Made by a program: the position numbers and the translations under genes. A DNA stretch of 64,000 bases from positions 54,578,291 through 54,642,290 of the forward strand of contig OX419755.1 of the NCBI GenBank assembly GCA_948567375.1. The letters run 5' to 3'. The stretch comes from Lunularia cruciata (taxonomy: Eukaryota > Streptophyta > Marchantiopsida > Lunulariales > Lunulariaceae). Positions within the stretch are counted from its first letter, which is position 1; every line of letters begins with the position of its first letter. Of this stretch, positions 1-59,960 are shown piece after piece. The notes below the pieces were generated by a model. The model had not been told where the DNA came from and did no database searches. It saw only the letters and a list, made by a program, of their open reading frames with translations.

Positions 1-1027
1 GATAGCCCATGGCCAACCAAGGTAATTGGAGATCCTAATCTCCCAAGTGGCCTCTTTGCAAACCATACTTTTGCAATCCTCTCTTCACCGTCTAAACCAC
101 TCTCTTTGCTAAGCCATCTGCCTCAGGGTGATCTCGGGATGTAGTACGATGATCAATCAAAGCCTTGTCACACAAGACCTGAAACTCCCCCAAGAACTTT
201 GTACCCTAATCAGTCAAAACCTCAGCTGGTGCACCAAAATGACTAAGAACTCGATCCAGGAACGAGTAAGTTGTCCCTTCACTAGACTTGTCAGGAAGTG
301 CCACCAACTCAATCCACTTGGAGAAGTGCTCCACCATCACCAAAACATACCAATGATGTCTCACAGTCAATGGTAAAGGTCCGGCGAAGTCCAAACTCCA
401 ACGGTAACCCAATCCCATGATAGGTAATGGGTGTAATTGTGGCGTAGGAGCATTGAATGATGCTCTAACTCAATCACAAACCATACATCTGGCAACAAAA
501 TGTTGTACCTCAGTCTGCATACCGCGCCACCAATAATGACTCTGAAGTAAGCTATACGTACGCTTTACTCCAAAATGTCCTAGCTCCTCATGAGCATGAC
601 GGACCAACTGTTTTCTCTATGCTAGAAGTGGTACTACCCGCACTCTACCATCCTCCCATACACGCAAAAGGTGTCTACCCTCCAATCTGAACAGTCTGGC
701 TCGCTGAAGAACACGGTCTCTCTCCTTGGCCCCAACTGTGCCACCCACAACACCAGTGCAAAGATAGTCCATCACTAAAACATCATCATGAATGTCTTGC
801 TGAACTATACCGATATCTTCACTCTCTAGATCTGTGACCTCAATAACTCCTCTTGTATGCGCTGAGAGAGATACCACCAATGCCTTTGCAAATATACACA
901 GAAAGGCCGATGCATGCCAACCAGGCACCATCCCCTCATTTGTCTCACCATGCCAACGTGCTCCGGTCTGATCCTGCTGGTTGGGACATGGGTTCCTACT
1001 CAACCCATCTGCATCACGGTTCACCAC
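1..1027 (-). pseudogene. RNase H end, integrase zinc domain and integrase core (partial), Gypsy element
   Basis: The frame 1,027-617 begins with VNRDADGLSRNP, the end of the RNase H/connection region, and then a spacer. Around 560-470, HYWWRGM..VQHFVARCMVCD gives part of the HHCC integrase zinc-binding domain, followed by a TGA at 472-470. The frame 418-206 is integrase core: YRWSLDFAGPLP includes the first catalytic Asp (D,D-35-E), and FGAPAEVLTD holds the second. It ends in a TAG at 208-206, and further stops follow toward base 1. The glutamate and C-terminal domain are degraded or off-window. Confidence 0.85.
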
Positions 1028-2358
1028 TCTAGGTCTATGAACAACCGTGAAATCATACTCCTATAAAGCAGAGCCCATCGTGCAAGCTTCCCTGAAAGCT
1101 TGTTGGACTCCATCAACCACTTTAGCGGCTGATGATCAGTGATGAGAGTGAAGGGGTTACCAAATAGGTAACATCGGAAATGTGCTACTGCCCAAACTGC
1201 TGCCAAGCACTCTCCCTCATATGAACTATACTTCGCCTCTGCTGAATTGTTGGAGCGACTAGCATAGGCCACCACAAACTCCTTCTCCTCATCATCATGC
1301 TGGGTGAGCACCGCTCCAAGCCCCAACATACTCCAATCAATGTGAACCTGAAATGGTTGTCCCCTGATCGGTCTCCTCAAAATAGGAGCAGATGTCAACC
1401 TCTCCTTGAGCTCTACAAAAGCTCTCTCCTGCTCATCTCCCCAACACCACTCTTGTGTAAGCTTGGTCAGCTTCATCAAGGCCTTGGCAATGGCACTAAA
1501 TCCTCTAACATAGCGGCGATAGAAGTTTGCCAACCCAAGGAATGCTCGCACTCTACTCACATCCGTAGGCCGAGGAATACGTGCAATAGCCTCCACCTTG
1601 GTCTGTTGAACACCAAGTCCTCTGAGGTAGATAGTGTGACCCAAATACTCAACCTGCTCATGGAAGAACCTACACTTCCCAGGATGTAATTTGAGTCCAT
1701 GAGGTCTCAACCTCTCAAACACCTCCAACAACTGTCTCTCATGCTCCTCCACAGTAGTGCTATAAACCAAAATGTCATCAATATAGCACCGAGCAAAATC
1801 CAATCCAGCTAGGATCCTATCCATGACCCTCTGGAACTCAGCAGGAGCGTTCTTCAACCCAAATGGTAAGAACCTCCACTGATATAACACATCCTTACCG
1901 TGAGGATCAATAGCCCAAAATGTTGTCTTGGACTTATCCTCCTCCCTGATCGGCAACTGATGATATCCCGCTTGAAGATCCAAAGTACTGAAGACCTTTG
2001 CATGCCCAATCACATCAAAAATCTCCTCCGGTGTAGGCATGGCATACCGATCAGCCTTGGTCTGTCGGTTGATAGGACGGTAATCTCCACACATCCGCCT
2101 ATCTGTATAGTTGCCATGCATATCCTTCTTGGCTGGCATCGTTGTCGCTAATGCATACTCTCCATGTGAAATCTCCACCAAACCAGCCTCAAAAAGGTCA
2201 CTACTCCAGCTCTGAATCAATGTCTTCTCCATATCACTATATTGATAAGGACGTCGAAAAACATGTGTGTTGCTAGTCAGCTCAATCCATATACCATGTC
2301 CCTTCAGAGCACCCAAATCCTTCATACTGAAGGCAAAACAACTCGTGTGACTCCTCAA
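1021..2358 (-). pseudogene. Reverse transcriptase and RNase H, Gypsy element
   Basis: This would copy element RNA into DNA in the virus-like particle. In order, the 445 residues show CGDYRPIN (about 90-97), the LDLQAGYHQL motif (about 127-136), LPFGLKNAPAEFQRVMD (about 164-180), the catalytic YIDDILVYS (YIDD at 1,785-1,774), YLGHTI, and FLGLANFYRRYV. The RNase H domain follows, with HIDWS..GLGAVL, EGECLAAVWA and TDHQPLKWLM. All catalytic landmarks are visible. Shortly after KLARWALL the frame slips at about 1,062, and the correct frame shows a TAG at 1,063-1,061, so RNase H is cut from the integrase part. This is the best preserved stretch of the element. Confidence 0.92.
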
Positions 2359-2778
2359 GAACCTCCAAACCCTCCGTCTCTCCTCTCCAGTACGCTTGGG
2401 TCCAAGATTTGGCTCCCAAGTATCCTCTGTAACTGTAGTAGGAGTGGAAGACGTACTGGCTGCTACACTAGGCCCTTGGGAGCAATAGTGTCCTGCTCCC
2501 GACCACTAGAGGTCCCAACCTCTGTGCAAAAAACTCCCTCCACTTTAGCTGCAAGCTCCACACATCCTCTAGCTGCATCCCATGTGGACCAAGGGTGTAA
2601 TCCAAGTAGCCCACTTTCACCTCGATAGACTCCAAGTAGACCACTCTCCCTAGTAGCTACTGGATGTGTCCCAAGAATACCATGTCCACTCGGTCCATTG
2701 CCCCCAGCATGTGCCTGAATTGTCTCGATAGGCACAGGGCTCACAAGTGTCCGAGTGGTGATGCCTATCAAGCGCATC
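2359..2778 (-). other. Spacer between methyltransferase and reverse transcriptase in the Gypsy element
   Basis: The minus-strand frame continues from the methyltransferase tail into low-complexity Gly/Ser/Pro-rich sequence with a repeated ESGLLG-type motif (around 2,600-2,660). No domain recognised. It ends before the start of the conserved reverse transcriptase frame. Confidence 0.45.
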
Positions 2779-3406
2779 CTACGCTGCTCTGCCAAGCCAA
2801 GCCTCACAATCCAGGTCAAACAGTTCAGGTCCATAGCTTGACCTAACACCTGACGCTTGGATGCCTCTGACACTGCTGGAACAGTGGTAATACCGGTGCA
2901 AAAACCCATCACCCGCTCTCTCTCTCATCAGCGTTGGGCTCCACCAACTGCTGTAACTTCGAGTCCCAAACAAGTCCAGGTCCTCCCTCTCAAAAAGCAT
3001 GAGAGCCTGGGAAACTCATGAGTGTGGGAAATGCAGCTCTAGGCTGTCCAACTAGGTTCACCACTGTCATAGGTGACCTATCAGCCACTACCATTGTCTT
3101 AGACTGATGCCCAACATCCAAGATATCATCAACAGGAATGTGGTCCAGTCGCTGAATCCCATCATAAGCACGTTGTAGAACCTCTCTGGGTAAGAAGTTC
3201 GTCCACCAAAGACGAAGACAATGAGCCCGTGATCCCACTCTAACTGCATCTAACAATATAGCAGGTCCCATCCAAGAATGGACCTGATGTGTACTCGCTA
3301 CCACTCTAGTGCGAGAATCACCCATCAATAGAACGTTCTCCAAAAGGTAAGCTGGAGAAACAGACTGATGAACCTGGAGATGTCGTGTATCCGTAACATC
3401 TCCCAA
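2779..3406 (-). pseudogene. C-terminal half of the element-encoded cytosine-C5 methyltransferase
   Basis: The first frame (3,406-2,990) carries motif VI LLENV (ENV at 3,340-3,332), then HCLRLWWTNF, matching motif VIII, and a segment likely to be target-recognition sequence. It stops at a TGA (2,992-2,990) that looks like a mutated CGA. The alignment continues through a GA-rich slip near 2,920 into the frame beginning at 2,912, with GFCTGITTVPAVSEAS followed by LGQAMDLNCLTWIV (from about 2,846), the position expected for motifs IX-X. Together with the upstream half, most of a C5-methyltransferase fold is represented, about 320 residues, but it is broken in at least three places. Confidence 0.75.
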
Positions 3407-3412
3407 AACACA

Positions 3413-4468
3413 CTAGAACGAGGATCCTGAAGACCCAAACCGCGGCCTGCACGTGTATGTCCCTAACATAGCCATCCAGAAATCACCAAGTGAAATAGGC
3501 CCATGTCTCTCTAGGTCATGCGCCCCCAATAAGGAAATGTCTCCTGGTAAGGCCTTCTGGTAACCTCTGATTGCTGACATCGGTAATAACTCCGGATACC
3601 GATAGGCCAAGTGTGCCACATGATCTAGAGAGACTCGCCTAGCAGTCTCATCTCTCTCTACATACAAGTACCTCTGTACTCGGATACCCGCCTGTAACAC
3701 CGCAACTAGTCCGGTGCTGATCCCACCAAACAACTCCAATAGGCATATCCCCTCTACTGGATACTGCCAAGCAATGAGTGTGGTATCTAGAGGTGTCAAA
3801 GCAATCGCCTCTGGAGGCTCATCCTCACACTCATCCCCTAATGGTACAAAGGCTCCACTCCAAGCCTGTTGCACCAACTGATCTGCATGTTGCTGCAATG
3901 CCTCCTCTGAACTCCACAATGGAACATCCAAGGTGGATGGAACAATCCCACTTGTACTCCAAAGCCGAGTGATCTCCTCTGGTACTGGAGTATCCTCTGC
4001 ATGGGCGTTCCCCTCCAACAAGTCACCAGGCCAAGTAACTGCACCGCTGAAAGCCAAAACTGATGCTGCCATGGTCCCGGACTGTAGTGAGCCAAGACTG
4101 CCACTATTGAAGCGTACTGGTAGGCGACATACCCGTCCCTCACCAGACTGCCAACCAGGTCTATAAGAGGCTGTCTCCTCCCAATAGTCAATGCTGAAAC
4201 CCATAGGGTATAACACTGCTCCCCCAACTAGCACATCATATGACTCAGCTATCGTCGCAATAGCCTGAGCTCTCACCACCGAGCTATCAGTCGGATGACC
4301 AGGCTGAACCTGGACAACCAGCTCTCCACGTGTGATGTACTGTGTCGAACCACCACCTAGAGATGTCTGGATCTGAAATGGACACCTCTCCACATCGGTC
4401 TTCCGTAACTCCAGACCGACAACTGCAGCTTTCCCCAACATAAGGGGCTGTGCACTAGAGTCTAACAA
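3413..4468 (-). pseudogene. Retroviral-type aspartic protease fused to N-terminal half of a DNMT-like cytosine-C5 methyltransferase
   Basis: The N-terminal ~120 residues look like a retropepsin-like protease: LLDSSAQPLMLG is at the catalytic Asp site (4,462-4,454), where Gly of the D-S/T-G triad reads Ser, and YDVLVGGAVLYPMGF matches the second hydrophobic strand. After an acidic linker (about 150-235), the frame becomes a SAM-dependent C5-cytosine methyltransferase: motif I LELFGGISTG at residues 244-253 (3,739-3,710), motif II-like YVERDETARRV, then HDLERHGPI before motif IV. The frame then shifts. In the neighbouring frame the motif IV Cys codon survives (3,468-3,466), but the Pro before it reads Leu and a TAG follows at 3,465-3,463. 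The motif order is the non-permuted type (DNMT3/DNMT1-like, unlike plant DRM). Confidence 0.8.
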
Positions 4469-4615
4469 GACTCTCTATGGTGTATATACCTTCCTTGAAG
4501 GTCCCACCAAACAAAAAATCCCCCTTTGGTTATCCAATAGGACAACACCAGGTGTAAACCGCGCTCTCTCAAAAGCCGGTCTAGATGGCAACTCCTCCAG
4601 TCTAGCCGTTGCTGC

Positions 4616-5359: not shown

Positions 5360-6646
5360 CTATAACTCCGGATGTAGGTCAAAACACCGGTCACTAGTGT
5401 GACCAAATCTGTGGCAATGCTCACACTGCCTCTGTGCTGGCTGTGATGCACTAGAGGTATCAGGTCCGCTGCCCTGAGTACACTCTCTCCTATGGTGAGG
5501 TCCACCACAAGTCCAACAAGCAACACCACCACTCACTGGCTGCTGCTGACCCGAAAATGAGGGTAAGGGTCTAACTCCACTAGGCCCTCCACTCGCTTCA
5601 TAGGATCTGGGCTGTCCACCTTGTTCTCGAAAACCAACTGGGCGTGGTGCACTCTGCTGCACTCTAGAAGAAGTCACAGCCGTGGATGAGGCCTCCCTAC
5701 CAAATCCAGATGTCACCACTCTCTCCTCCACCATATTGAGCTCAATACGCTCAGCCAAACCAAAGACTACTGCCAAAGAGGGCGAAGTAGCCTGCAGCAA
5801 CGTAGCATCATGAACTCTACATCGCAACTCCCTATCTAGTATCCCATACCAAAACTGGACTGCCTGGGCCCCAGTAACTCCCTGAGTGAAACTGATCAGC
5901 CGCCTCATGCGAGTATATGCCTCGCTTAGGCTCTCTCCAGCCTTCCGCTGAAACTCCTGCAAGCTCCTCAGCTTGTCAGTCGGTACTCCCTGGTAGTTCT
6001 ACCTCAAACACAGGAAGAACTCCACCATGAGGTTAAACCCCAATACTACACCACCTCCTGTAGTGGTACCTCCACTTGTAGTAGGACTATCTCCAGCTAG
6101 TGCACCTCCACTAGCTCCACCCACACTACTTGAGCTAGAACTCGTAGGTACAGCCGATCTACTCTTGGCCACCGAGCCTGAAGTGATGGAGATATAGTGT
6201 GGAGACCAATACTGCCTCCATAACTCAATCTCCTCCAAATGAGCTCTCCTGAACTCATGGTAGTCATCCATCGGCGGACCCTCCAGATGCTGAAACAACC
6301 CCTTCCATGCCATGAAGGGTGTGAACAAAGTCGGGTTCCGTATCTGCTGCATATCACACCAACTATTGAACTCTTGGATAAAGTCATCCAACTCAATGGT
6401 ACCCACTGTACCAGAGTAACGCCTTGGGCCTTTGGAGGCCCCATAAATCTCGTCCATGTCCCATAACAACGGTGCGGACACACCAAGTGCACTCTCAACT
6501 GAATCAGATCCTATGTCAAACTCCAACTCACAGTCAATCTCCTCCCTCATTGGGACCTGAGATACAGGCTGATACCAAGCACCACTCCAAGTAAACCCCC
6601 TGCATACTGCAGGGCTAACTCCTCTGGAATCTCCAAAGAACTCCAT
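5360..6646 (-). pseudogene. gag (capsid and nucleocapsid), Gypsy element
   Basis: Gag would form the virus-like particle and bind element RNA. The first reading frame has its first good ATG at 6,646 and ends at 5,999. It carries an aromatic, acidic region with a tryptophan-rich stretch typical of retrotransposon gag, then a serine/glycine-rich linker. A frameshift near 5,980 leads into the next frame (5,962-5,360), which continues the capsid (QEFQRKAGESLSEAYTRM, about residues 2-19) and ends with two zinc knuckles: CWTC..H..C at about residues 149-161, and a perfect C-x2-C-x4-H-x4-C at residues 180-193. Stop codons and the frameshift make it non-functional. Confidence 0.8.
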
Positions 6647-7064
6647 CGTGACAAAATAACCGCAACAGCAAACCCGAACCACCAACTGCAACCGCAAGTC
6701 GCAACCGCAAGTACCCCACCAAAGTGCCAACACCACCACGTGCCAACACCAACTAAACACCACCCACTAATGTAACTCTAACCGAGATAACTACACTAGG
6801 GGAAGGGCAACCTGTAACCTGCCATCATAACATGCACTGTCACGGTCTGCAGGTCATCACTTCCTGCCTCACCGGAGAGAAACAAAGGTAGTCTGACTGG
6901 TCATCACTCCAGCCTCACCACCGAGAGCACACTAGAGCACCAACGCTCAAAAGTTAGGGCATCTCACACAAATGTGGTGCACAAACAGGAAGTAGAGAAT
7001 GGAGGGGATCCAATCACAAGAAACCTAAACAAAACCCTCCATCTCATAACACAACACGGGACTG

Positions 7065-7076
7065 ACTCTGCCACCA
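7065..7076 (-). other. Primer binding site of the Gypsy element
   Basis: On the minus strand the sequence TGGTGGCAGAGT lies just inside the LTR. It resembles the initiator-Met-tRNA type site (TGGTATCAGAGC) used by many plant LTR elements, with several differences. Its position between the LTR end and the gag leader supports the call. Confidence 0.6.
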
Positions 7077-7078
7077 TT

Positions 7079-8443
7079 TGGCATTTGACATAAGAGTAGT
7101 TTGTATCTAAGTCCTAAGCTACCAGGATCACCAAGAATGGGATCAAACTGCCTCTCCTAGCCAAAGCTACATGTGTATAGATAACAGTGGTGTAGTCACT
7201 AGGACAACAAGTGAGGGTGGACCAGTTGGCTAGGGCACTAGTCTAGGAACAAGAGATCTAGGGGTCAAACCCTATTGCGCACAATCTAGCCGGAAAGGCA
7301 GATTTTGCCAACCAATGACCAAGATCTACTCTAAACTAGCTAGCCTCACGCCAGCAAGCTGGCTTGCTGGCCCTTCTGGGCCTTTGTAGCCTCTCATAGC
7401 CCACAGCCCTATGCCTCAAAACGCCAAAATTCAGCCAAATGAGGCCTTTCTTGTTGCCACTTTGAACCTCCTCCAAAATTAGCAAAACTTCTCCAAATCT
7501 ACAAAAGTCCTCCAAACTAGCGGAACTCCTCCAAATCTGGCCAAAATCTGACATAAATCCCAACCAAAATCTGACGTAAAATCTGACATAAACCCTAAAG
7601 ATGGCTGTCCACAAATCCCCCGCTAACTTTCCACTCAAGCCAAATTGACAAAACGGGTTTTTCCAAATCACAATTTCATGAGAAGAGCTTCCCAACTCCA
7701 CCTTCAATTTGACTTTCTGAGCCCAACTCGCAGCAAATTGGTCCTGCCTTCACCTCTTGAGCTCAAAATCACAACACTGCTCAAAAATTGCTCCTTCTTT
7801 GCTCAAAATTTGGCCAATGCTTCCGCACACCGTCCGCCTAACTGCCAAATCTACATCACTTGAACGAGCTTCTGCACACTAGGGAAACACAGAACTTGAA
7901 TCAAGCTACCACGATCCACCGAGCTTGGAGATACCACCAACACTCAACGTTCCTGCACCCGATTTCCCCCTAACTTCACTTCTCTGATGTAATTAGATTG
8001 CTTAACACTCTCAACTCAACTCAACTCAACTCAGATTAGTACTTGATCTCTCACTCTATAAACTGCCAACAACTGGGCACTGGTTACAGTCAAGTCATAC
8101 CCACTCAAGCATAGAGAATCCAGGTGACGCTCGCCGGCCTCTGTCCACCATAGCCAGGAACTCGAAGGCTCAACATCAGAGAAGTGAGCTCTCAAGAGCT
8201 CACTTCAAAACTATACCACCTGGACTCGAGCTAGCACTGGAACCCTAATGGTCTCGCTGACGGCACACTCGACGGTGCGAACGGTGCAAAGTGATGGTGG
8301 GCCCCACCGTGAAGTCAGTACCCCGAACACAAAATCTAACCATCGGAAAGTAGTCCTTGAGAAACTACTAGAATAACTCTAACTACTATCACTGGAACTC
8401 CAGTGTCCGAGCAGCTAGATGCGGAACTACAAATGGCGTGACA
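7079..8443 (-). repeat. 5' LTR of the Gypsy element
   Basis: On the minus strand it starts TGTCACGCC at 8,443 and ends in CCA at 7,079, two bases before a tRNA-like primer site, giving about 1,365 bp. The segment 8,020-8,443 is clearly similar to 62,412-62,830, which lies next to a second integrase fragment in the same orientation; that recurrence supports calling it an LTR. It includes a short (AACTC)n run at about 8,014-8,034. The 7,079 boundary is inferred from the primer site and could be off by a few bases. Confidence 0.7.
7217..7275 (+). other. tRNA-like Pol III promoter remnant inside the LTR (tentative)
   Basis: On the plus strand, ACCAGTTGGCTAGGGCAC resembles a Pol III A box, and about 40 bases on GGGGTCAAACCCT resembles a B box. 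This spacing is typical of tRNAs and tRNA-derived SINEs. No cloverleaf could be closed by eye, so it is not called as a tRNA gene. It may be a SINE scrap within the LTR or chance. Confidence 0.25.
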
Positions 8444-15782: not shown

Positions 15783-17214
15783 TATTACTTGTCGACCGCC
15801 TTACCTTCTCTGCTAGGTTCTCCCTTCCTTGACTTTCCTATCACATCTAAGAGCTTTTGATAGGAGGATTATGAGAGTCTTTGGTAATATCATCGGACTA
15901 GGGAAAATTGACTAGGGACATTTGGGATGGGGTGTTTAGCACATAGATAGACATCTCTACCTATCTCGTGTGGAGGTGTAGACCTATTATCTATGGAGGA
16001 GATGGCACTTATAGCATTTTTGGGTAGTTGTGCTCTCTCAGTATCCCTACTTTCTTCCCTTTTTGTGGTTGTTGATAGGCCAATTTTGGAGACTTATGTG
16101 ACCAAGGTGGAGGAGAGATCCTTCTCGTTAGGTGTTATTGCAGCGGACGAGGGATGGTCTACCTCCATAAGCATGGGAGGACCTTCCATCCTTTGCTTCA
16201 CTACCGTCAGATTGGACCAAAGGTTTGTAGTCTTCTTTGATGGAGCAATAGTGTCAACATATGCTACATTCTTTCTTAGTTGACTCATTCATTCCTTGGG
16301 CCACTAGAGCACATCTTTGCTCTTGCTCCAGCAAGGGTGCATGCTCTTGGATCTTAGCTCAATTGTGCCTTAGGGCATTCCGACTCGCACCAACCACTTT
16401 CTTTGTAGTGATGAGGTTCCGCCTAGGTTTGGTCCACCTGTCTACATCTTTGTTACTCACATGTGAGTGTGGTTCTTCACTAGATGCAACAACGGTCCAT
16501 ATGACACAATGTTCTAATGGAGGCAAAGGATAGCTACCCATGATGCCATCAAGGATATAGTGTTTGCTATGGCACGAGAGAGTGGATACCTTGCTTGGAG
16601 GGAGCATTTGCATTCTTTGCATACAACATGTGTCAAAGTAAACTTATACTTGGTCCAAGATGATCAAGTGATAGTGGAAGATGTTGTGTTTACAAACTCT
16701 ACATGTGATGCAATTTTGGAGGGATTGATTACACATCCTCTTGGATAGTCAGCTAGCGGAGTAACAGCACGCAAGGTTTCCAAGTTTAGGCGTATGCAGG
16801 GTCACTTCTTTGTTCCTCTAGCCTTGGAGTTATATGGAGCAACAAACATGGCATTTAACACATTTGTCAAGGAGTGCACTAGGGCTTATCATATTAGACA
16901 CCAAGGGGTACCACTCTCACTCTCATACTTTGTAGCATACTTTAGACAACAAGTGTCTATTGCACTACAAAGAGCATTGGTTGGTGTAATCCATAGGACA
17001 GCTATCACTCTAGATGATGCTTCTTCAGATTCTCTAGTAGTTTGTAGACCTTACAACTTGCATAGCTTAAATATCTTAGGTGCGGTAGGGCAGATTTCTC
17101 ATGTCTATAATATTGGGGCCTAGTCCCATTTTACCTTGGTCTCTCCCTTGTATGGCTTTATGGGGTTGGTCTTCCCATCCTTCTTGCATTCTATGTGGTT
17201 GCCTTCTTTCTTCT
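15783..17214 (+). mobile_element. Non-LTR (R2-like) retrotransposon, 5'-truncated copy
   Basis: It starts abruptly at TTGTCGACCGCC, which matches the middle of the longer copy at about 49,222, and runs to the shared 3' end (GCCTTCTTTCTT). Frame 15,993-16,283 is the end of the reverse transcriptase region (MEEMALIAFLGSCAL). Frame 16,261-16,533 carries LLTCECGSSLDATTVHMTQC, a C-x-C-x8-H-x3-C knuckle. Frame 16,560-16,748 has CVKVNLYLVQDDQVIVEDVV, where the nuclease motif Asp appears as Asn. Frame 16,794-17,123 is the C-terminal tail. Frameshifts separate these frames. 5' truncation with an intact 3' end is the usual product of target-primed reverse transcription. Confidence 0.85.
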
Positions 17215-19666: not shown

Positions 19667-20023
19667 AAGGAGGGAAGAAATGCAGGAACGTAGAAGCATC
19701 GATCGTTTTGTTTTGGTTAGTTTTTCTTCTCCAATCGAGAACACTAGCAGGAAATTATTATCAACAGACTGCGGTTTTGAGACTTCCGATTTCACAAGTT
19801 AAATCGAATTAAACCCCACGTGTAGATTGTCATGCGCTTAAGTTCGTTTTATCTCGGTCTGCGGCTGATCGGTTCTTCTGCAAAAAGTTGAATACAAGTG
19901 CTTGTTAGGTCTTCCTTTGGTATTTTACTATTGAATTGCGTTACTTTTATTTTGACTGGAGCGTACTTGAGTCATTTTGCTTTTACAGAGACCATACCGG
20001 TGTTTCCTGAGAGAACACACAAC

Positions 20024-20908
20024 ATGGAGACGTCGGAGAGCCCTCCCACAACATGCTCAAACGCCAATGTGGAAAGTACTGGAGACTCGGAGGGTCCTGG
20101 GACCAGTCGCGTATCTAAAGACTGCCACCGGGTAGTTTTGGCCACTCGAGCTAAACGTTCGAATGCCAATATGGCAATCATCTATGACAAGTTCATGACT
20201 CGACGAGCAGGAGTTAGCAAAGCACTGACCGTCGAGTTTGAAAAGTTCTTCCTGGCATGCGATTCGGAAAAGGAGTTGTCTTTGCACGGGTTAGAGAATG
20301 GAGGGTGGAGGCTTGTCCCTCCAGTTCCGGAAGTTCCGAATGACCTTCCTGAGCCGAGTATCGGGATCAATTATGTACGAGATGAAATGACAAAGCGCGA
20401 ATGGTTGGAGCTTGTCGCCAGACACAGCGATGCTTGGTTGTTTGCACTGCTGTCATATTGGAGTGTAATTCTCACCAAGGAACAGAGGCAGAAGCTGTTT
20501 GAGGATGTATGCGAGTTGCCACCGGTGGTTGAGGTTGTCGAGAATTACAAACCGCATCTGTTGCAGGTTCCCGAGGGGGTTAAGCAAGGGATGGTAACAA
20601 GCCCACTCCAGCCCGATATATTTCAGAAAGATATGCTTGTTGAAAATGAGCCGGTCGAAGATGACGACTCCCTCTGTGGACTTTGTCATGGAGAATGCAT
20701 CACAGGGAAAAGGATGACATTCTGGATTTGGTGTGACTGTTGTAAGCACTGGTATCATGGCCACTGTGTGGGCGTGACACGAGCGAAAGCTAAAAAGATT
20801 GGACTTTATGAATGTCCAATTTGCTGCAGCATAAGAGAGACTGCAACTGATGAGGTTACATGTGTAATTCGTGGAATGAAGATAACCAAGAATTCAGACG
20901 ACTCATAG
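20024..20908 (+). CDS. AL: Alfin-like PHD-finger protein (single exon)
   Basis: Predicted nuclear chromatin reader; Alfin-like PHD fingers bind histone H3 methylated at Lys4. The 294-residue protein has an N-terminal Alfin domain (about residues 48-178; landmarks IIYDKFMTRRAGVSKALT, LPEPSIGINYVRDEM, WLELVARHSDAWL, ELPPVVEVVE), a variable linker (179-215), and a complete C4HC3 PHD finger: Cys218/221, Cys237/240, His245/Cys248, Cys264/267, with FWIWCD giving the reader aromatic. The ATG at 20,024 is the first in frame; the upstream open stretch to 19,898 starts at GTG, and a TTGCTTTTACAG acceptor-like site ends at 19,988, so a 5'-leader intron is possible. Oddities: no intron in the coding region, whereas family members usually have several, and a 47-residue N-terminal extension. 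It is either a retrocopy or a divergent paralogue. Confidence 0.85.
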   Translation: METSESPPTTCSNANVESTGDSEGPGTSRVSKDCHRVVLATRAKRSNANMAIIYDKFMTRRAGVSKALTVEFEKFFLACDSEKELSLHGLENGGWRLVPPVPEVPNDLPEPSIGINYVRDEMTKREWLELVARHSDAWLFALLSYWSVILTKEQRQKLFEDVCELPPVVEVVENYKPHLLQVPEGVKQGMVTSPLQPDIFQKDMLVENEPVEDDDSLCGLCHGECITGKRMTFWIWCDCCKHWYHGHCVGVTRAKAKKIGLYECPICCSIRETATDEVTCVIRGMKITKNSDDS

Positions 20909-41809: not shown

Positions 41810-41888
41810 CTGATGGTGAGTTTCGTTCTTGTGGGTTACTCAGAAAAGCGAATTGACGCAGCAGAAGGATTTGGCGTCAATCGGAGAA

Positions 41889-42275
41889 ATGGACGCCGAT
41901 GCTTCTTCAGCTCCTCCTGCAGCAAAGGCCGGACCGCAAATGGATACGAAAATCTGGGCCGGGTTTCACCAAAATTTTAGTCAAGTCCAATACCTTTTAG
42001 ATCACAACCGACTCCTTATCAATGAAATTAATCAGAATCATGAATCTAAGATACCAGAAAGTCTGGCTCGCAATGTTCTACTGATAAGAGAGCTCAACAA
42101 TAATATATCTAAAGTTGTGGACTTGTATGAAAGTCTCTCTGTCTCATTTGTAAAGCTATTTGACAACTCGTCAGAAGACGATACTACTAGAGCCTCATCC
42201 AAACCAGGTGAAGCTATGGGAGCTATGAAACCCCCTCCTGCATCTCAAGGCATGAAGAATGTCCGTCATGAATAG
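41889..42275 (+). CDS. ELF4: ELF4 / ELF4-like circadian clock protein
   Basis: ELF4 joins ELF3 and LUX in the evening complex, a nuclear repressor of clock and growth genes. The 128-residue product has an Ala/Pro-rich N-terminus (about 1-19), then the ELF4 domain (about 20-92): KIWAGFHQNFSQVQYLLDHN, RLLINEINQNHESK, LARNVLLIRELNNNISKVVD and LYESLSVSF, which form the family's helical hairpin. The tail is low-complexity. Start choice: 41,889 is the first in-frame ATG; the open frame upstream to 41,829 begins only with TTG. The coding region is a single exon, as in Arabidopsis ELF4, and shows no stop or frameshift. Promoter element at 40,887. It could be ELF4 or an ELF4-like paralogue; these cannot be separated by eye. 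Confidence 0.92.
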   Translation: MDADASSAPPAAKAGPQMDTKIWAGFHQNFSQVQYLLDHNRLLINEINQNHESKIPESLARNVLLIRELNNNISKVVDLYESLSVSFVKLFDNSSEDDTTRASSKPGEAMGAMKPPPASQGMKNVRHE

Positions 42276-48528: not shown

Positions 48529-49598
48529 TTGGAGGATGTGAGGCTAATATCTCTAGGCATTAGAGCACTCCTAGATACCCATCCAGAGTGGGTCGTCCTA
48601 CAGGTGGATGTTGAGAACACTTTTAATAGCATCTCATGGGCATCCATCTTTAGAGAGCTTAGGGAGGCTGGTGGATCCTTGGCAAGTCTCATTCCTTTTG
48701 TGCAGTCTTTTTATGGCTCTCATGCTTCCCTTTACTACCAGCATGGTGGTTCATAGGAGGGAGTCACCGTCTTGGAGTCAACTGTTGGTACATGTCAGGG
48801 AGTTCCTTTGGGAGGGCCCTTATTTACCATAGTTCACTTTAGAGCTCTCTTATCTACTACTTTGGCCATACCAGGTTGTGTATTTCACTCCTTGGCAGAT
48901 GATACACACATTGTAAGCCCTGTAGATCAGATTAGGCAGGCCTTTGACTACTTGATTACCGAGCTACATCTAGTAGGCTTGAAAGTCAAGGTGTCAAAGT
49001 GTAGAGCATGGTCCCTTCAGGTATCCCTCCCTACCTTGAGCTTCTAGAGGGATGTATCACATCCACAAATAGACTTTGTGTTCTTGAAGTGCTAGTAGGA
49101 TTGGAGGATTTTGTCACACGCTTCTTAGATGCTGCCCTTGCAGAGGATGTTCTCCATGTAGATGACCTTCCATTACTAGGAGATCTGCAGGTGGCATTTG
49201 GTATACTCTCCTCCAGTATTTCTTGTCGACCATCCTACCTCATCCGTATAGTTCCTCACTCATCGTCCTTCCTATCCTGTCCGAGAGCATTTGATAGGAG
49301 GATTATGGGAGTCTTTGGTGATATTATTGGACCAGGGACTTTTGAGTGTGTGACAAGGGATTTGACACGTAGACATACAACTCTGCCAATCTCATGTGGT
49401 GGGGTTGGCTTGCTATCTATGGAGGAGATGGCACCTATAGTGTTTTTGGGTAGCTGGGCTCTCTTGGCACCCCTACTTTCCTCTCATTTTGTGGTTACTA
49501 ATAGGCCGGTTTTGGAGACTTATGTGACAGAGGTGGAGGGAGGATCCTTTTCTCTCCAAGTGTTATTGCGGCAAACAAGAGATAGTCTATCTCCATGA
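48529..49598 (+). pseudogene. Reverse transcriptase region of the non-LTR element
   Basis: Consecutive frames read VVLQVDVENTFNSISWASIF (first catalytic Asp), SLIPFVQSFYGS, GTCQGVPLGGPLF, then FHSLADDTHIVSPVDQ, the LADD form of the F/YxDD catalytic motif, then GLKVKVSKCRAWS. The frame continuing from 49,008 gives the thumb and linker (DLPLLGDLQVAFGILSSSIS, RIMGVFGDIIGPGTFE, LPISCGGVGLLSMEEMAPI). At least three frame changes are needed to read through. A minus-strand frame over 48,384-48,692 is a shadow. Confidence 0.8.
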
Positions 49599-58629: not shown

Positions 58630-59960
58630 ATAGGTAAAATCAATAGATACAAGGCTAGGCTTGTTGCTAAGGGTTATGCATGAGTAAGGCCTTGACTACA
58701 AGGAGACATTTAGTCCAATGGCCAAGATGGCTACTATTTGTGTTGTTTTAACCATTATAGTTCATTGAGGATAAAAGCTACATCAGATGGATTTTTTCTA
58801 ATGCCTTCCTTAATGAAGATTTGATTGAGGAATTTTACATGATGCAGCCTCTAGGTTATGAGAGTACACACTTTCCTAGTCAAGTGTGTAAACTTGATAA
58901 AGCTCTTTATGGCTTGAAACAAGCACAAAGAGCATGATACCAAAAGATTACTGGTTTTTTTTGGAGCATTTGGGCTTGATCATATGTACATCTGATTCAT
59001 TATTGTATATTTTACAACATGGTTGTCATATCATCTTGCTAACATTGCATGTTGATGACTTGATCCTTCTGAGCAGATTGTATAAGAGATGAAGCTTGCT
59101 TTGCAAGCTGAATCCAAGATGAAGACATGGGAACTCAATACTCTCTTGCTGTTGAGTATATTTGGTGTAGCGATGGGTTGTGGTTGCTACAAAGTCAATA
59201 TGATATAGATTTTTTTCTAGGTTTGGCATGACTTAATGCAAACCAACAAAGACTCCTCTTGAGCAGAATTTGAGGCCTACACCAAAAACCAAGGAGTTAA
59301 TTGCAGATACCAATATGTATAGGAAGATGGTTGGAAGTTTGATCTATTTGACTATCACTAGACCAGATTTGAGTTATTCAGTTAGGGAAGTCAGTCAATT
59401 TATGCAGTCTCCCAAGAAAACTCATCTTGATGCAGTACATAGGATTTTGAGGTATATAAACAAAACCACCATGTTTGGTCCTCAATTTTCTTTGGCTTCA
59501 AAATTTGATTTACATGGGTATACAAATGCAGATTGGTCAGGCAGTACTTATGATAGAAAATCTACATTAGTATATGAATTCAAGTTTGGTGACACAATTG
59601 TGAGTTGGGCTTGAAAGAAGTAACCAATAGTGGTATTATCTTCAACAAAGGTTGAGTACAGAGGTGCTACTATGACAGCATGTGAGTAAGTTTGGTTATG
59701 TAGTTTGCCGACCTCTTTAGGTTTTATATCTTCTGATGCAATGGTGATGTATGGAGATAACATAAGCATCATTCACTTGGCAAATAATCCAATTTTCATG
59801 CCAAAACAAAGCACATCAAAGTACATTATCATTTCATTTGAGAGAAAGTGTTGGCAAGGGAGATTGACTATGTTTATGGTCCAACAAGGGAACAAATTGC
59901 TAACATCTTTTCCAAGAGCCTACCTAGAGATAAACTAGAGAAGTTTAGATTTGATCTAGG
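58630..59960 (+). pseudogene. Reverse transcriptase and RNase H of the Copia element
   Basis: RYKARLVAKGYA (about 58,640), [53 protein letters not shown] and LHVDDLILL-like text (about 59,045) are the Copia reverse transcriptase landmarks. Frame 59,270-59,614 gives MYRKMVGSLIYLTITRPDLS and LHGYTNADWSGSTYDRKSTL, then KKQPIVVLSSTKVEYRGATM and GDNISIIHLANNPIF of RNase H, ending near a PREQIANIF-type stretch. Numerous stops and frame changes. Confidence 0.85.

What the first reader, a model, noticed from the sequence alone, without database searches (positions are those of the whole stretch)
2779..4468. A DNA cytosine-C5 methyltransferase built into a plant Ty3/Gypsy polyprotein
Seen: between the protease and the reverse transcriptase of the minus-strand Gypsy element lie motif I (LELFGGISTG, 3,739-3,710), a motif II-like YVERDETARRV, a degenerate motif IV with its Cys codon still present (3,468-3,466), motif VI LLENV (3,340), HCLRLWWTN at motif VIII, and a terminal LGQAMDLNCLTWIV block at motifs IX-X. 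Known: retroelement-borne DNMTs have been reported from charophyte algae and dinoflagellates; land-plant cases are, as far as I know, little described. Inference: the element once methylated DNA itself, perhaps to hide new copies as silent chromatin, or to change its own regulation. The non-permuted motif order separates it from plant DRM enzymes.
Basis: partly seen in the sequence, partly recalled or inferred. Interest (0 to 1): 0.92.

Follow-up and report, generated by a model that had tools for sequence, protein, structure and literature searches.

The report
Liverwort jumping gene carrying DNA methyltransferase
A family of retrotransposons (jumping genes) in a liverwort carries its own DNMT3-like DNA-methylating enzyme, placed so that it is probably made together with the particle protein, which suggests that the element marks its own new DNA copies; a similar element was reported from an alga in 2018, and this extends the story to land plants.

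Summary
Confirmed, and larger than claimed. The window copy is decayed, but its genome (566 Mb; host probably a complex thalloid liverwort, ELF4 gene 91% identical to Marchantia paleacea) holds over 100 relatives: 66 of 111 scored matches have no stop inside the enzyme. All 20 copies fetched keep one order: (gag in 19) protease, methyltransferase, stop, reverse transcriptase, RNase H, integrase, PHD finger. The enzyme is DNMT3-like by profile and predicted fold, with unpermuted motifs; relatives occur in Marchantia polymorpha, Calypogeia and Sphagnum. Two features were not in the finding. (1) The stop after the methyltransferase is UAG followed by CARYYA, the tobamovirus leaky-stop context, in 39 of 41 junctions and in a relative 50% diverged, where pol continues in frame. 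The enzyme would then be made at Gag level and RT-integrase by readthrough. (2) The ends are not ordinary LTRs but split direct repeats A...B-A-B, with TG...CA termini and 4-base target duplications. A 2018 paper describes a DNMT3 domain and DIRS-like repeats in a Gypsy element of the alga Klebsormidium; this is most likely a land-plant variant of that kind. Self-methylation of new cDNA is inferred, not shown.

The parts
7990..8443 (-). A1 repeat: 5' terminus of the element (starts TGTCACGCC at 8443)
   Evidence: 93.6% identical over 454 bases to repeat A of copy L016; A recurs as A2 between two B repeats at the 3' end
6647..7989 (-). leader, presumed untranslated, with a primer-site-like TGGTGGCAGAGTC near 7076
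   Evidence: motif; its role is not tested
5360..6646 (-). gag, with two zinc knuckles recognised by eye (5518-5477 and 5425-5363), broken here
   Evidence: in copies L011 and L012 it is in one frame with protease and methyltransferase
4080..4474 (-). retropepsin-like protease (LLDSSAQPLMLG; reads DSG in most aligned relatives); lower boundary approximate
   Evidence: alignment; two relatives (P0122, L031 ORF1) reach weak Asp_protease_2 matches below the Pfam cut-off
2800..3760 (-). DNMT3-like cytosine-C5 methyltransferase domain, motifs in unpermuted order, frame broken in this copy; boundaries approximate
   Evidence: motif positions; relatives PF00145; PDB profile search; fold search
2463..2465 (-). 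TAG stop that ends gag-pro-methyltransferase, followed by CAGCCA (2462-2457), a CARYYA leaky-stop context
   Evidence: same position and context in 39 of 41 junctions including this one, and in L031
1021..2456 (-). reverse transcriptase and RNase H, Ty3/Gypsy type
   Evidence: RVT_1 1.6e-31, RT_RNaseH 2.3e-33; copy L016 matches Ty3 Gag-Pol of PDB 7q5b at 5e-90
1..1060 (-). integrase, running off the window; outside it follow a PHD finger and repeats B-A-B
   Evidence: rve 3.9e-8 at 469-206; continuation read in L080

Best explanation
This is a decayed copy of a multi-copy, recently active Ty3/Gypsy-type retroelement of a liverwort that encodes its own DNMT3-like DNA methyltransferase. ORF1 is gag-protease-methyltransferase and ends in a leaky UAG-CARYYA stop; ORF2 (RT, RNase H, integrase, PHD finger) follows in the same frame and would be made by readthrough. 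The enzyme would thus be made, and packaged, in amounts like Gag rather than like RT, and would methylate cytosines in the element's cDNA inside the particle or after nuclear entry, so that new copies arrive already marked. The integrase's PHD finger would read a histone H3 tail and steer insertion. Shown: domain order, family membership, copy number, repeat structure, target duplications, stop context. Inferred: readthrough itself, packaging, enzyme activity, target sequence, benefit to the element.
For: 20 of 20 copies have protease-methyltransferase-RT-RNase H-integrase in the same order, and the PHD finger (in L025 cut by the stretch end). The best 111 scored matches in the genome cover nearly the whole methyltransferase, 66 of them without a stop (my count of its rows). 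Relatives named from Marchantia polymorpha, Calypogeia and Sphagnum; the P and C of motif IV are kept in 38 of 38 rows of A4, E and N of ENV in 36 of 38. DNMT3A/B/C are the 29 best PDB sequences (1e-19 to 6e-15; next DRM-type 1e-8, HaeIII 2.5e-8), and all 50 fold matches shown are DNMT3 structures. 17 retroelement domains form one clade (99/98) on the DNMT3/DRM side against 5 prokaryotic-type ones (98/95). Between L012 and L031 the methyltransferase (51-54%) is better kept than the protease (42%) or spacers (27%). pN/pS among 20 copies: methyltransferase 0.37, RT-RNase H 0.34, spacers 0.55-0.58. Leaky stop: with the motif documented in PMC5382211 (passages). PHD.
Against: The window copy is dead, and none of the 20 copies fetched whole is free of breaks in both ORFs: L011 and L012 have an open ORF1 with a broken ORF2, L015 and L016 the reverse. 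No activity, transcript, particle or methylome was seen. CpG is not more depleted in the element than around it (0.41-0.61 against 0.41 observed/expected), so no trace of self-methylation shows that way. The 20 copies were picked mainly for long open frames, which favours intact domains. Readthrough is read from context alone. The model is of modest quality (pLDDT 70.8, residues 249-310 below 50), so the stretch between motifs VIII and IX is poorly covered. The tree does not place the domain closer to DNMT3 than to DRM.
Confidence: 0.6

Rival explanations
1. The methyltransferase acts, but not to mark cDNA: it methylates host DNA in trans or the element's RNA, changing host silencing or the element's own expression.
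For: The 2018 paper says that the tested SymbioLINE-Dnmt did not methylate DNA in yeast and suggests RNA as a substrate (PMC5890265, section 11). A free Gag-level product could leave the particle (inference).
Against: The domain is DNMT3-like by sequence and fold, a DNA methyltransferase family; the same paper reports that a DNMT3-type retroelement enzyme methylates CG de novo.
Confidence: 0.25
2. The domain is a passenger: a one-time capture kept in Gag as a structural or nucleic-acid-binding piece without catalysis.
For: The window copy is broken in the domain, and 45 of 111 scored copies have a stop in it.
Against: The PC of motif IV is kept in 38 of 38 rows and the domain is the best conserved part of ORF1 at about 50% divergence.
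Confidence: 0.1
3. ORF2 is expressed not by readthrough of UAG but by reinitiation or a separate transcript; the CARYYA context is chance or descent.
For: Within the liverwort family the shared context could be plain descent; two of 41 junctions deviate at the last base.
Against: L031 has TAG CAA TCA where the liverwort has TAG CAG CCA: the fixed letters of CARYYA are kept while R and one Y differ, and the surrounding codons are unrelated. Chance for these six letters after TAG is 1 in 512 (arithmetic, equal bases). Pol continues in the same frame in both.
Confidence: 0.15
4. A nested or accidental insertion of a host DNMT3 gene into one Gypsy copy.
For: Host DNMT3-like genes exist in this genome (L003, with L006 judged by its likeness to it).
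Against: All 20 copies carry the domain at one place, and so do relatives in other bryophytes; the domain lies in one uninterrupted frame in many copies and forms its own clade apart from the host genes.
Confidence: 0.01

Closest known systems
KnitGypsy-Dnmt3 of the charophyte Klebsormidium nitens (de Mendoza et al. 2018, PMC5890265)
   Same: Gypsy domain composition, unpermuted DNMT3-related domain, multi-copy, repeats said in the Fig. 4 legend to be arranged as in DIRS elements, purifying selection on the domain.
   Different: Host is a land plant here. The paper places the domain in the 'Pol polyprotein ORF'; here it is at the end of the gag-protease ORF before a probably leaky stop. The main text mentions neither PHD nor readthrough; its figures could not be seen, so these may be unreported rather than different. 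No K. nitens sequence was fetched for direct comparison.
SymbioDIRS-Dnmt3 and SymbioLINE-Dnmt of dinoflagellates (same paper)
   Same: Retroelement-borne cytosine methyltransferases; the DIRS ones are DNMT3-type with A-coding-B-A-B repeats.
   Different: They use a tyrosine recombinase or LINE machinery; this element has a DDE integrase and a Ty3-like RT.
PAT (DIRS group) and Ngaro elements (PMC4157794, passages read)
   Same: Split direct repeats A1-B1-A2-B2.
   Different: No tyrosine recombinase family in the Pfam scans; 4-base target duplications and TG...CA ends instead.
Plant DNMT3 and DRM genes
   Same: Catalytic fold and motifs of DNMT3; the host DNMT3-like gene L003 also has PCQ in motif IV.
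   Different: No ADD or PWWP domain found in ORF1 of L012 or L031 by Pfam; DRM is permuted, this is not.

Membership tests
DNMT3-carrying Gypsy retroelements (KnitGypsy-Dnmt3 kind) | Gypsy RT, RNase H and DDE integrase | tested here: met
DNMT3-carrying Gypsy retroelements (KnitGypsy-Dnmt3 kind) | unpermuted DNMT3-related domain inside the element's coding region | tested here: met
   20 of 20 copies
DNMT3-carrying Gypsy retroelements (KnitGypsy-Dnmt3 kind) | repeat structure like that of DIRS elements | tested here: met
   B-A-B at the 3' end in 17 of 18 copies whose 3' end was fetched and in the window copy
DNMT3-carrying Gypsy retroelements (KnitGypsy-Dnmt3 kind) | domain in the Pol ORF, as the 2018 text puts it | tested here: not met
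   a TAG separates it from RT in 41 of 41 junctions and in L031. For this reason it is called a variant of the kind, not a plain member; the K. nitens layout itself was not seen
DNMT3-carrying Gypsy retroelements (KnitGypsy-Dnmt3 kind) | direct kinship with K. nitens sequences | not tested
   no row named Klebsormidium among those listed (120 of 129 and 120 of 271)
DNMT3 (catalytic domain) | closest solved relatives by profile and by fold are DNMT3 | tested here: met
DNMT3 (catalytic domain) | forms one clade with DNMT3 to the exclusion of DRM | tested here: inconclusive
   order among DNMT3A, host DNMT3, DRM and the retroelement clade is unresolved; retro plus DNMT3 as one clade is not rejected, p-AU 0.388
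DNMT3 (full protein) | ADD or PWWP domain | tested here: not met
   Pfam scan of ORF1 of L012 and L031 at E<=0.05 shows none
DRM | permuted motif order | tested here: not met
   motifs I, IV, VI, VIII, X in order against host DRM L004
canonical LTR retrotransposon | identical LTRs at both ends | tested here: not met
   5' end A, 3' end B-A-B
canonical LTR retrotransposon | TG...CA termini with a short target duplication | tested here: met
   exact 4-base duplication in 13 of 15 fetched copies with both ends readable; the window copy matches at 3 of 4 bases
DIRS/PAT | tyrosine recombinase | tested here: not met
   ORF2 of L015, L016 and L031 ends in integrase core and PHD; no such family in the Pfam scans
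TMV-type leaky stop (type I) | UAG CARYYA and an open frame beyond it | tested here: met
   39 of 41 junctions and L031; open ORF2 in L015, L016, L031
TMV-type leaky stop (type I) | measured readthrough | not testable with these tools
   needs a reporter or ribosome profiling

The most novel reading that the evidence does not exclude
A Ty3-like element has given up ordinary LTRs for split repeats and integrates from a form in which its ends are fused: the internal B-A junction, CACGACA-GC-TGTCACG, the same 16 bases in the liverwort family (its palindromic core exact in 13 of 20 fetched copies) and in the 50%-diverged L031, is a palindrome that a DDE integrase could cut after each CA to give processed ends directly. 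At the same time a DNMT3 enzyme made at Gag level marks the new DNA before integration, and a PHD finger on the integrase chooses chromatin. The element would thus carry a methylation writer and a histone reader and pass on its own silent state with each new copy.
Probability: 0.2. Interest if true: 0.85.

Novelty: new variant of a known kind. Interest (0 to 1): 0.66.

Why it matters
It moves retroelement-borne DNMT3 from one alga into land plants, with relatives in the model liverwort Marchantia polymorpha, where the puzzle of why a transposon would methylate itself can be tested directly. The leaky stop gives a concrete hypothesis about dose and place of action, and the repeat structure gives Ty3-like elements an unusual replication problem to solve. 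Such copies are also easily miscounted as host or bacterial DNMT genes in annotations: several rows are named as plain cytosine methylases.

Tried and rejected
Pfam on the window pieces alone: 0 of 3 hits, so relatives were needed. A first reading of the ends as ~1.39 kb LTRs with a primer site at their end, and the 262-base comparison made under it, were wrong in their boundaries: the six 3' stretches did not contain such an LTR end, and longer stretches showed repeats A (449) and B (107). The identities (0.954 to 1.0 for 15 copies, 0.858 for L015) are therefore of the first part of A1 against A2, and are used only to say that most of these copies are young. Viral contigs: 2 loci, both distant matches (28% and 39% over short stretches). 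Genome contigs: 5 loci, one useful (L031), four from Streptomyces. CpG depletion as a trace of self-methylation: no difference from the surroundings. A second methyltransferase clade (P0135 type) in this genome: the 74 scored matches are all 45-47% identical, so none seen among them.

Dropped rows: for target duplications, L012 and L018 (no 5' A found), L026 (no second B found), L019 and L025 (3' end not fetched) were left out of the 15. In pN/pS the gag value (0.60) is distorted by L019, whose gag region is foreign, and is not used. The tree used 17 of the many retroelement domains, cut to motifs I-VIII, and 5 prokaryotic-type rows (four Streptomyces, one viral contig, L001); L002 was left out because its methylase frame was not found.

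Full report
What was checked. The window pieces do not reach any Pfam family by themselves (0 of 3), but a protein search with the first piece finds 129 proteins at E<=0.001 (120 listed), best 2.3e-105, with names from Marchantia polymorpha, Sphagnum jensenii, Sphagnum troendelagicum and Calypogeia fissa, and many unnamed or metagenome proteins. PF00145 is found in 11 of 15 members of alignment A1 and in 9 of 10 longer relatives. A second search with an alignment finds 271 (120 listed).

Host. The window lies in a 565.8 Mb assembly. The ELF4 gene at 41820-42275 is 91% identical to Marchantia paleacea and 76-80% to two Riccia species, next 60% to Calypogeia. The host is therefore most likely a complex thalloid liverwort; the species is unknown to me.

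Copies. A PF00145 search of the genome scored 123 matches of 2161 first-look candidates, some of them host genes. A search with the full domain P0070 scored 111 of 13362, all covering nearly the whole domain at 72-74% identity, 66 of 111 without an internal stop by my count of the rows. Both are lower bounds. Twenty copies were fetched, most of them chosen for long open frames. All 20 show protease, methyltransferase, RT, RNase H and integrase in the window's order; L025 has an insertion of about 0.7 kb in pol; gag is found in 19, the exception being L019, whose 5' part is foreign. The PHD finger is found in 20 of 20, in L025 cut by the end of the stretch. L011 and L012 have an uninterrupted ORF1 of 1428 codons; L015 and L016 have an uninterrupted ORF2 of 1037 codons; no copy of the 20 is uninterrupted in both. 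The RT region of L016 matches the Ty3 Gag-Pol structure at 5e-90. A neighbouring element in L019, only 32% identical in pol, shows that another such family exists in this genome; whether it carries a methyltransferase was not examined.

The enzyme. A profile of 13 relatives finds DNMT3A/B/C as the 29 best PDB sequences (1e-19 to 6e-15), then DRM-type (1e-8), HaeIII (2.5e-8) and HhaI (3e-7). An AlphaFold model of P0070 (pLDDT 70.8, pTM 0.77) matches DNMT3 structures in all 50 rows shown. Among host genes, a DNMT3-like gene (L003), a second judged by its likeness to it (L006) and a DRM gene (L004, permuted; 1.6e-103 to DRM2) were identified. In a tree of 27 rows the 17 retroelement domains are one clade (99/98), on the DNMT3/DRM side against 5 prokaryotic-type methylases (98/95); the order among DNMT3, DRM and the retroelement clade is open, and the program warns of long branches. 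The P and C of motif IV are kept in 38 of 38 rows of A4, Q in 37, E and N of ENV in 36, the second R of motif VIII in 32 with 4 gaps.

Selection. Between the liverwort ORF1 (L012) and L031 the methyltransferase is 51-54% identical, the protease 42%, spacers 27%, the C-terminal tail 17%; the four other comparisons (P0124, P0122, P0125, P0121) also rank the methyltransferase above protease and spacers. Among the 20 copies pN/pS is 0.37 for the methyltransferase, 0.35 protease, 0.34 RT-RNase H, 0.44 integrase, 0.37 PHD, 0.55 and 0.58 for the spacer and the C-terminal tail. The copies are young and partly dead, so the spacers serve as the yardstick rather than 1.

The stop. In copies with open frames ORF1 ends just after the methyltransferase tail and ORF2 continues in the same frame. 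The junction reads TAG-CAG-CCA in 36 of 41 sequences examined (20 fetched copies, 20 further copies that are the first 20 rows, the window), fits TAG-CARYYA in 39 of 41, and starts TAG in 41 of 41. L031, a contig filed under a cyanobacterial MAG but carrying this retroelement at 50% identity in the enzyme, has TAG-CAA-TCA at the same place and an ORF2 of 1047 codons in the same frame. UAG-CARYYA is the type I readthrough signal of plant viruses (PMC5382211, passages read). Seven database proteins (P0122, P0124, P0125, P0148, P0160, P0192, P0198) end 70-126 residues after the LGQAxDLN motif, against 119 in L012 and 108 in L031; their DNA was not seen, so some may end for other reasons. No listed row or 27 combines PF00145 with an RT family, though the search's length limit would miss a full fusion.

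The other end. ORF2 ends in a PHD finger above Pfam's cut-off in L015, L016, L031 and Marchantia P0015 and in the window copy outside the window (96% to L016). Its nearest solved relatives include CHD4, KMT2D, KDM5B, DPF and PHF21A fingers; that several of these read unmodified H3K4 is recalled, not tested.

The ends of the element. The 5' end is repeat A (449 bases); the 3' end is B-A-B with B of 107 bases, in 17 of 18 copies with the 3' end fetched (L026 is the exception) and in the window copy. The integrated form begins TGTCAC (TGTCAT in L029 and L030) and ends CGACA in most copies. Exact 4-base target duplications flank it in 13 of 15 copies with both ends readable; L015 and L022 have none, and the window copy matches at 3 of 4 bases. 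The internal B-A junction keeps two further bases between CA and TG, forming the palindrome GACAGCTGTC, exact in 13 of 20 copies (of the other seven, five are changed at one or more bases and L019 and L025 lack it there); the 16 bases CACGACAGCTGTCACG occur also in L031. That an integrase could use this fused junction is my inference.

Known and new. The closest published system is KnitGypsy-Dnmt3 of Klebsormidium nitens (PMC5890265; parts 1-2 of 7 and sections 9 and 11 read, passages searched): Gypsy domains, an unpermuted DNMT3-type domain, repeats 'the same as that of a DIRS retrotransposon'. Its main text has no mention of Marchantia, Sphagnum, liverwort, PHD or readthrough; its figures and supplements were not seen. 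A 2025 paper says that some DNMT3 members are embedded in LTR Copia and DIRS retrotransposons, as reported in streptophytes and dinoflagellates (PMC12344493, passages). Five full-text searches that bear on DNMT-carrying retroelements in plants (listings seen) and one on PHD in Gypsy elements of an open-access library listed no paper whose title or abstract start describes such elements in land plants; subscription papers are not covered. Because the 2018 text puts the domain in the Pol ORF and here it is not, I call this a new variant of that kind; the Gag-side position, leaky stop, PHD-tailed integrase and fused-end junction are details that I have not seen described.

What is shown and what is not. 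Shown: sequence, order, kinship, copy number, repeats, stop context. Not shown: activity, readthrough, packaging, what is methylated, and why. The CpG test gave no support.

Noticed in passing
window 19892-20908 +: Alfin-type gene exon with a PHD match below cut-off (PF12165 1.2e-37, PHD 0.0016); unrelated to the element as far as seen.
   Followed up: partly
window 41820-42275 +: ELF4 gene (PF07011 3.5e-35), used to place the host.
   Followed up: yes
window 15951-16283 + and 49005-49598 +: Two stretches encode similar peptides (SLPISCGGV.LLSMEEMA..., seen by eye), probably fragments of one unrecognised repeat family; no Pfam hit.
   Followed up: partly
window 59237-59614 +: Looks by eye like a Copia RT/RNase H fragment (NADWSGSTYDRKST); no Pfam hit at E 0.01.
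   Followed up: partly
L015 oriented 34-312: A second, more divergent methyltransferase fragment (63% to P0070, 73% to the window piece) lies just upstream. L015's A1 is 98.7% and its A2 88.6% like the reference, and it has no target duplication: possibly a recombinant.
   Followed up: no
L031 (CADCWO010000201.1): A retroelement contig of eukaryotic type is filed in a cyanobacterial MAG; the contig's two ends overlap by 48 bases, as if assembled as a circle. P0192 is likewise named as a methylase of a bacterial MAG.
   Followed up: partly
protein rows: Several metagenome pieces of this retroelement are named 'site-specific DNA-cytosine methylase' or 'DNA (cytosine-5-)-methyltransferase': a trap for counts of host or bacterial DNMT genes.
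   Followed up: no
L011-L030, leader end, e.g. L011 oriented 1674: TGGTGGCAGAGTCAGTC, shaped like a tRNA primer site, lies about 0.9 kb behind the end of A and some 0.3 kb before gag, not next to the repeat; its role is unexplained.
   Followed up: no
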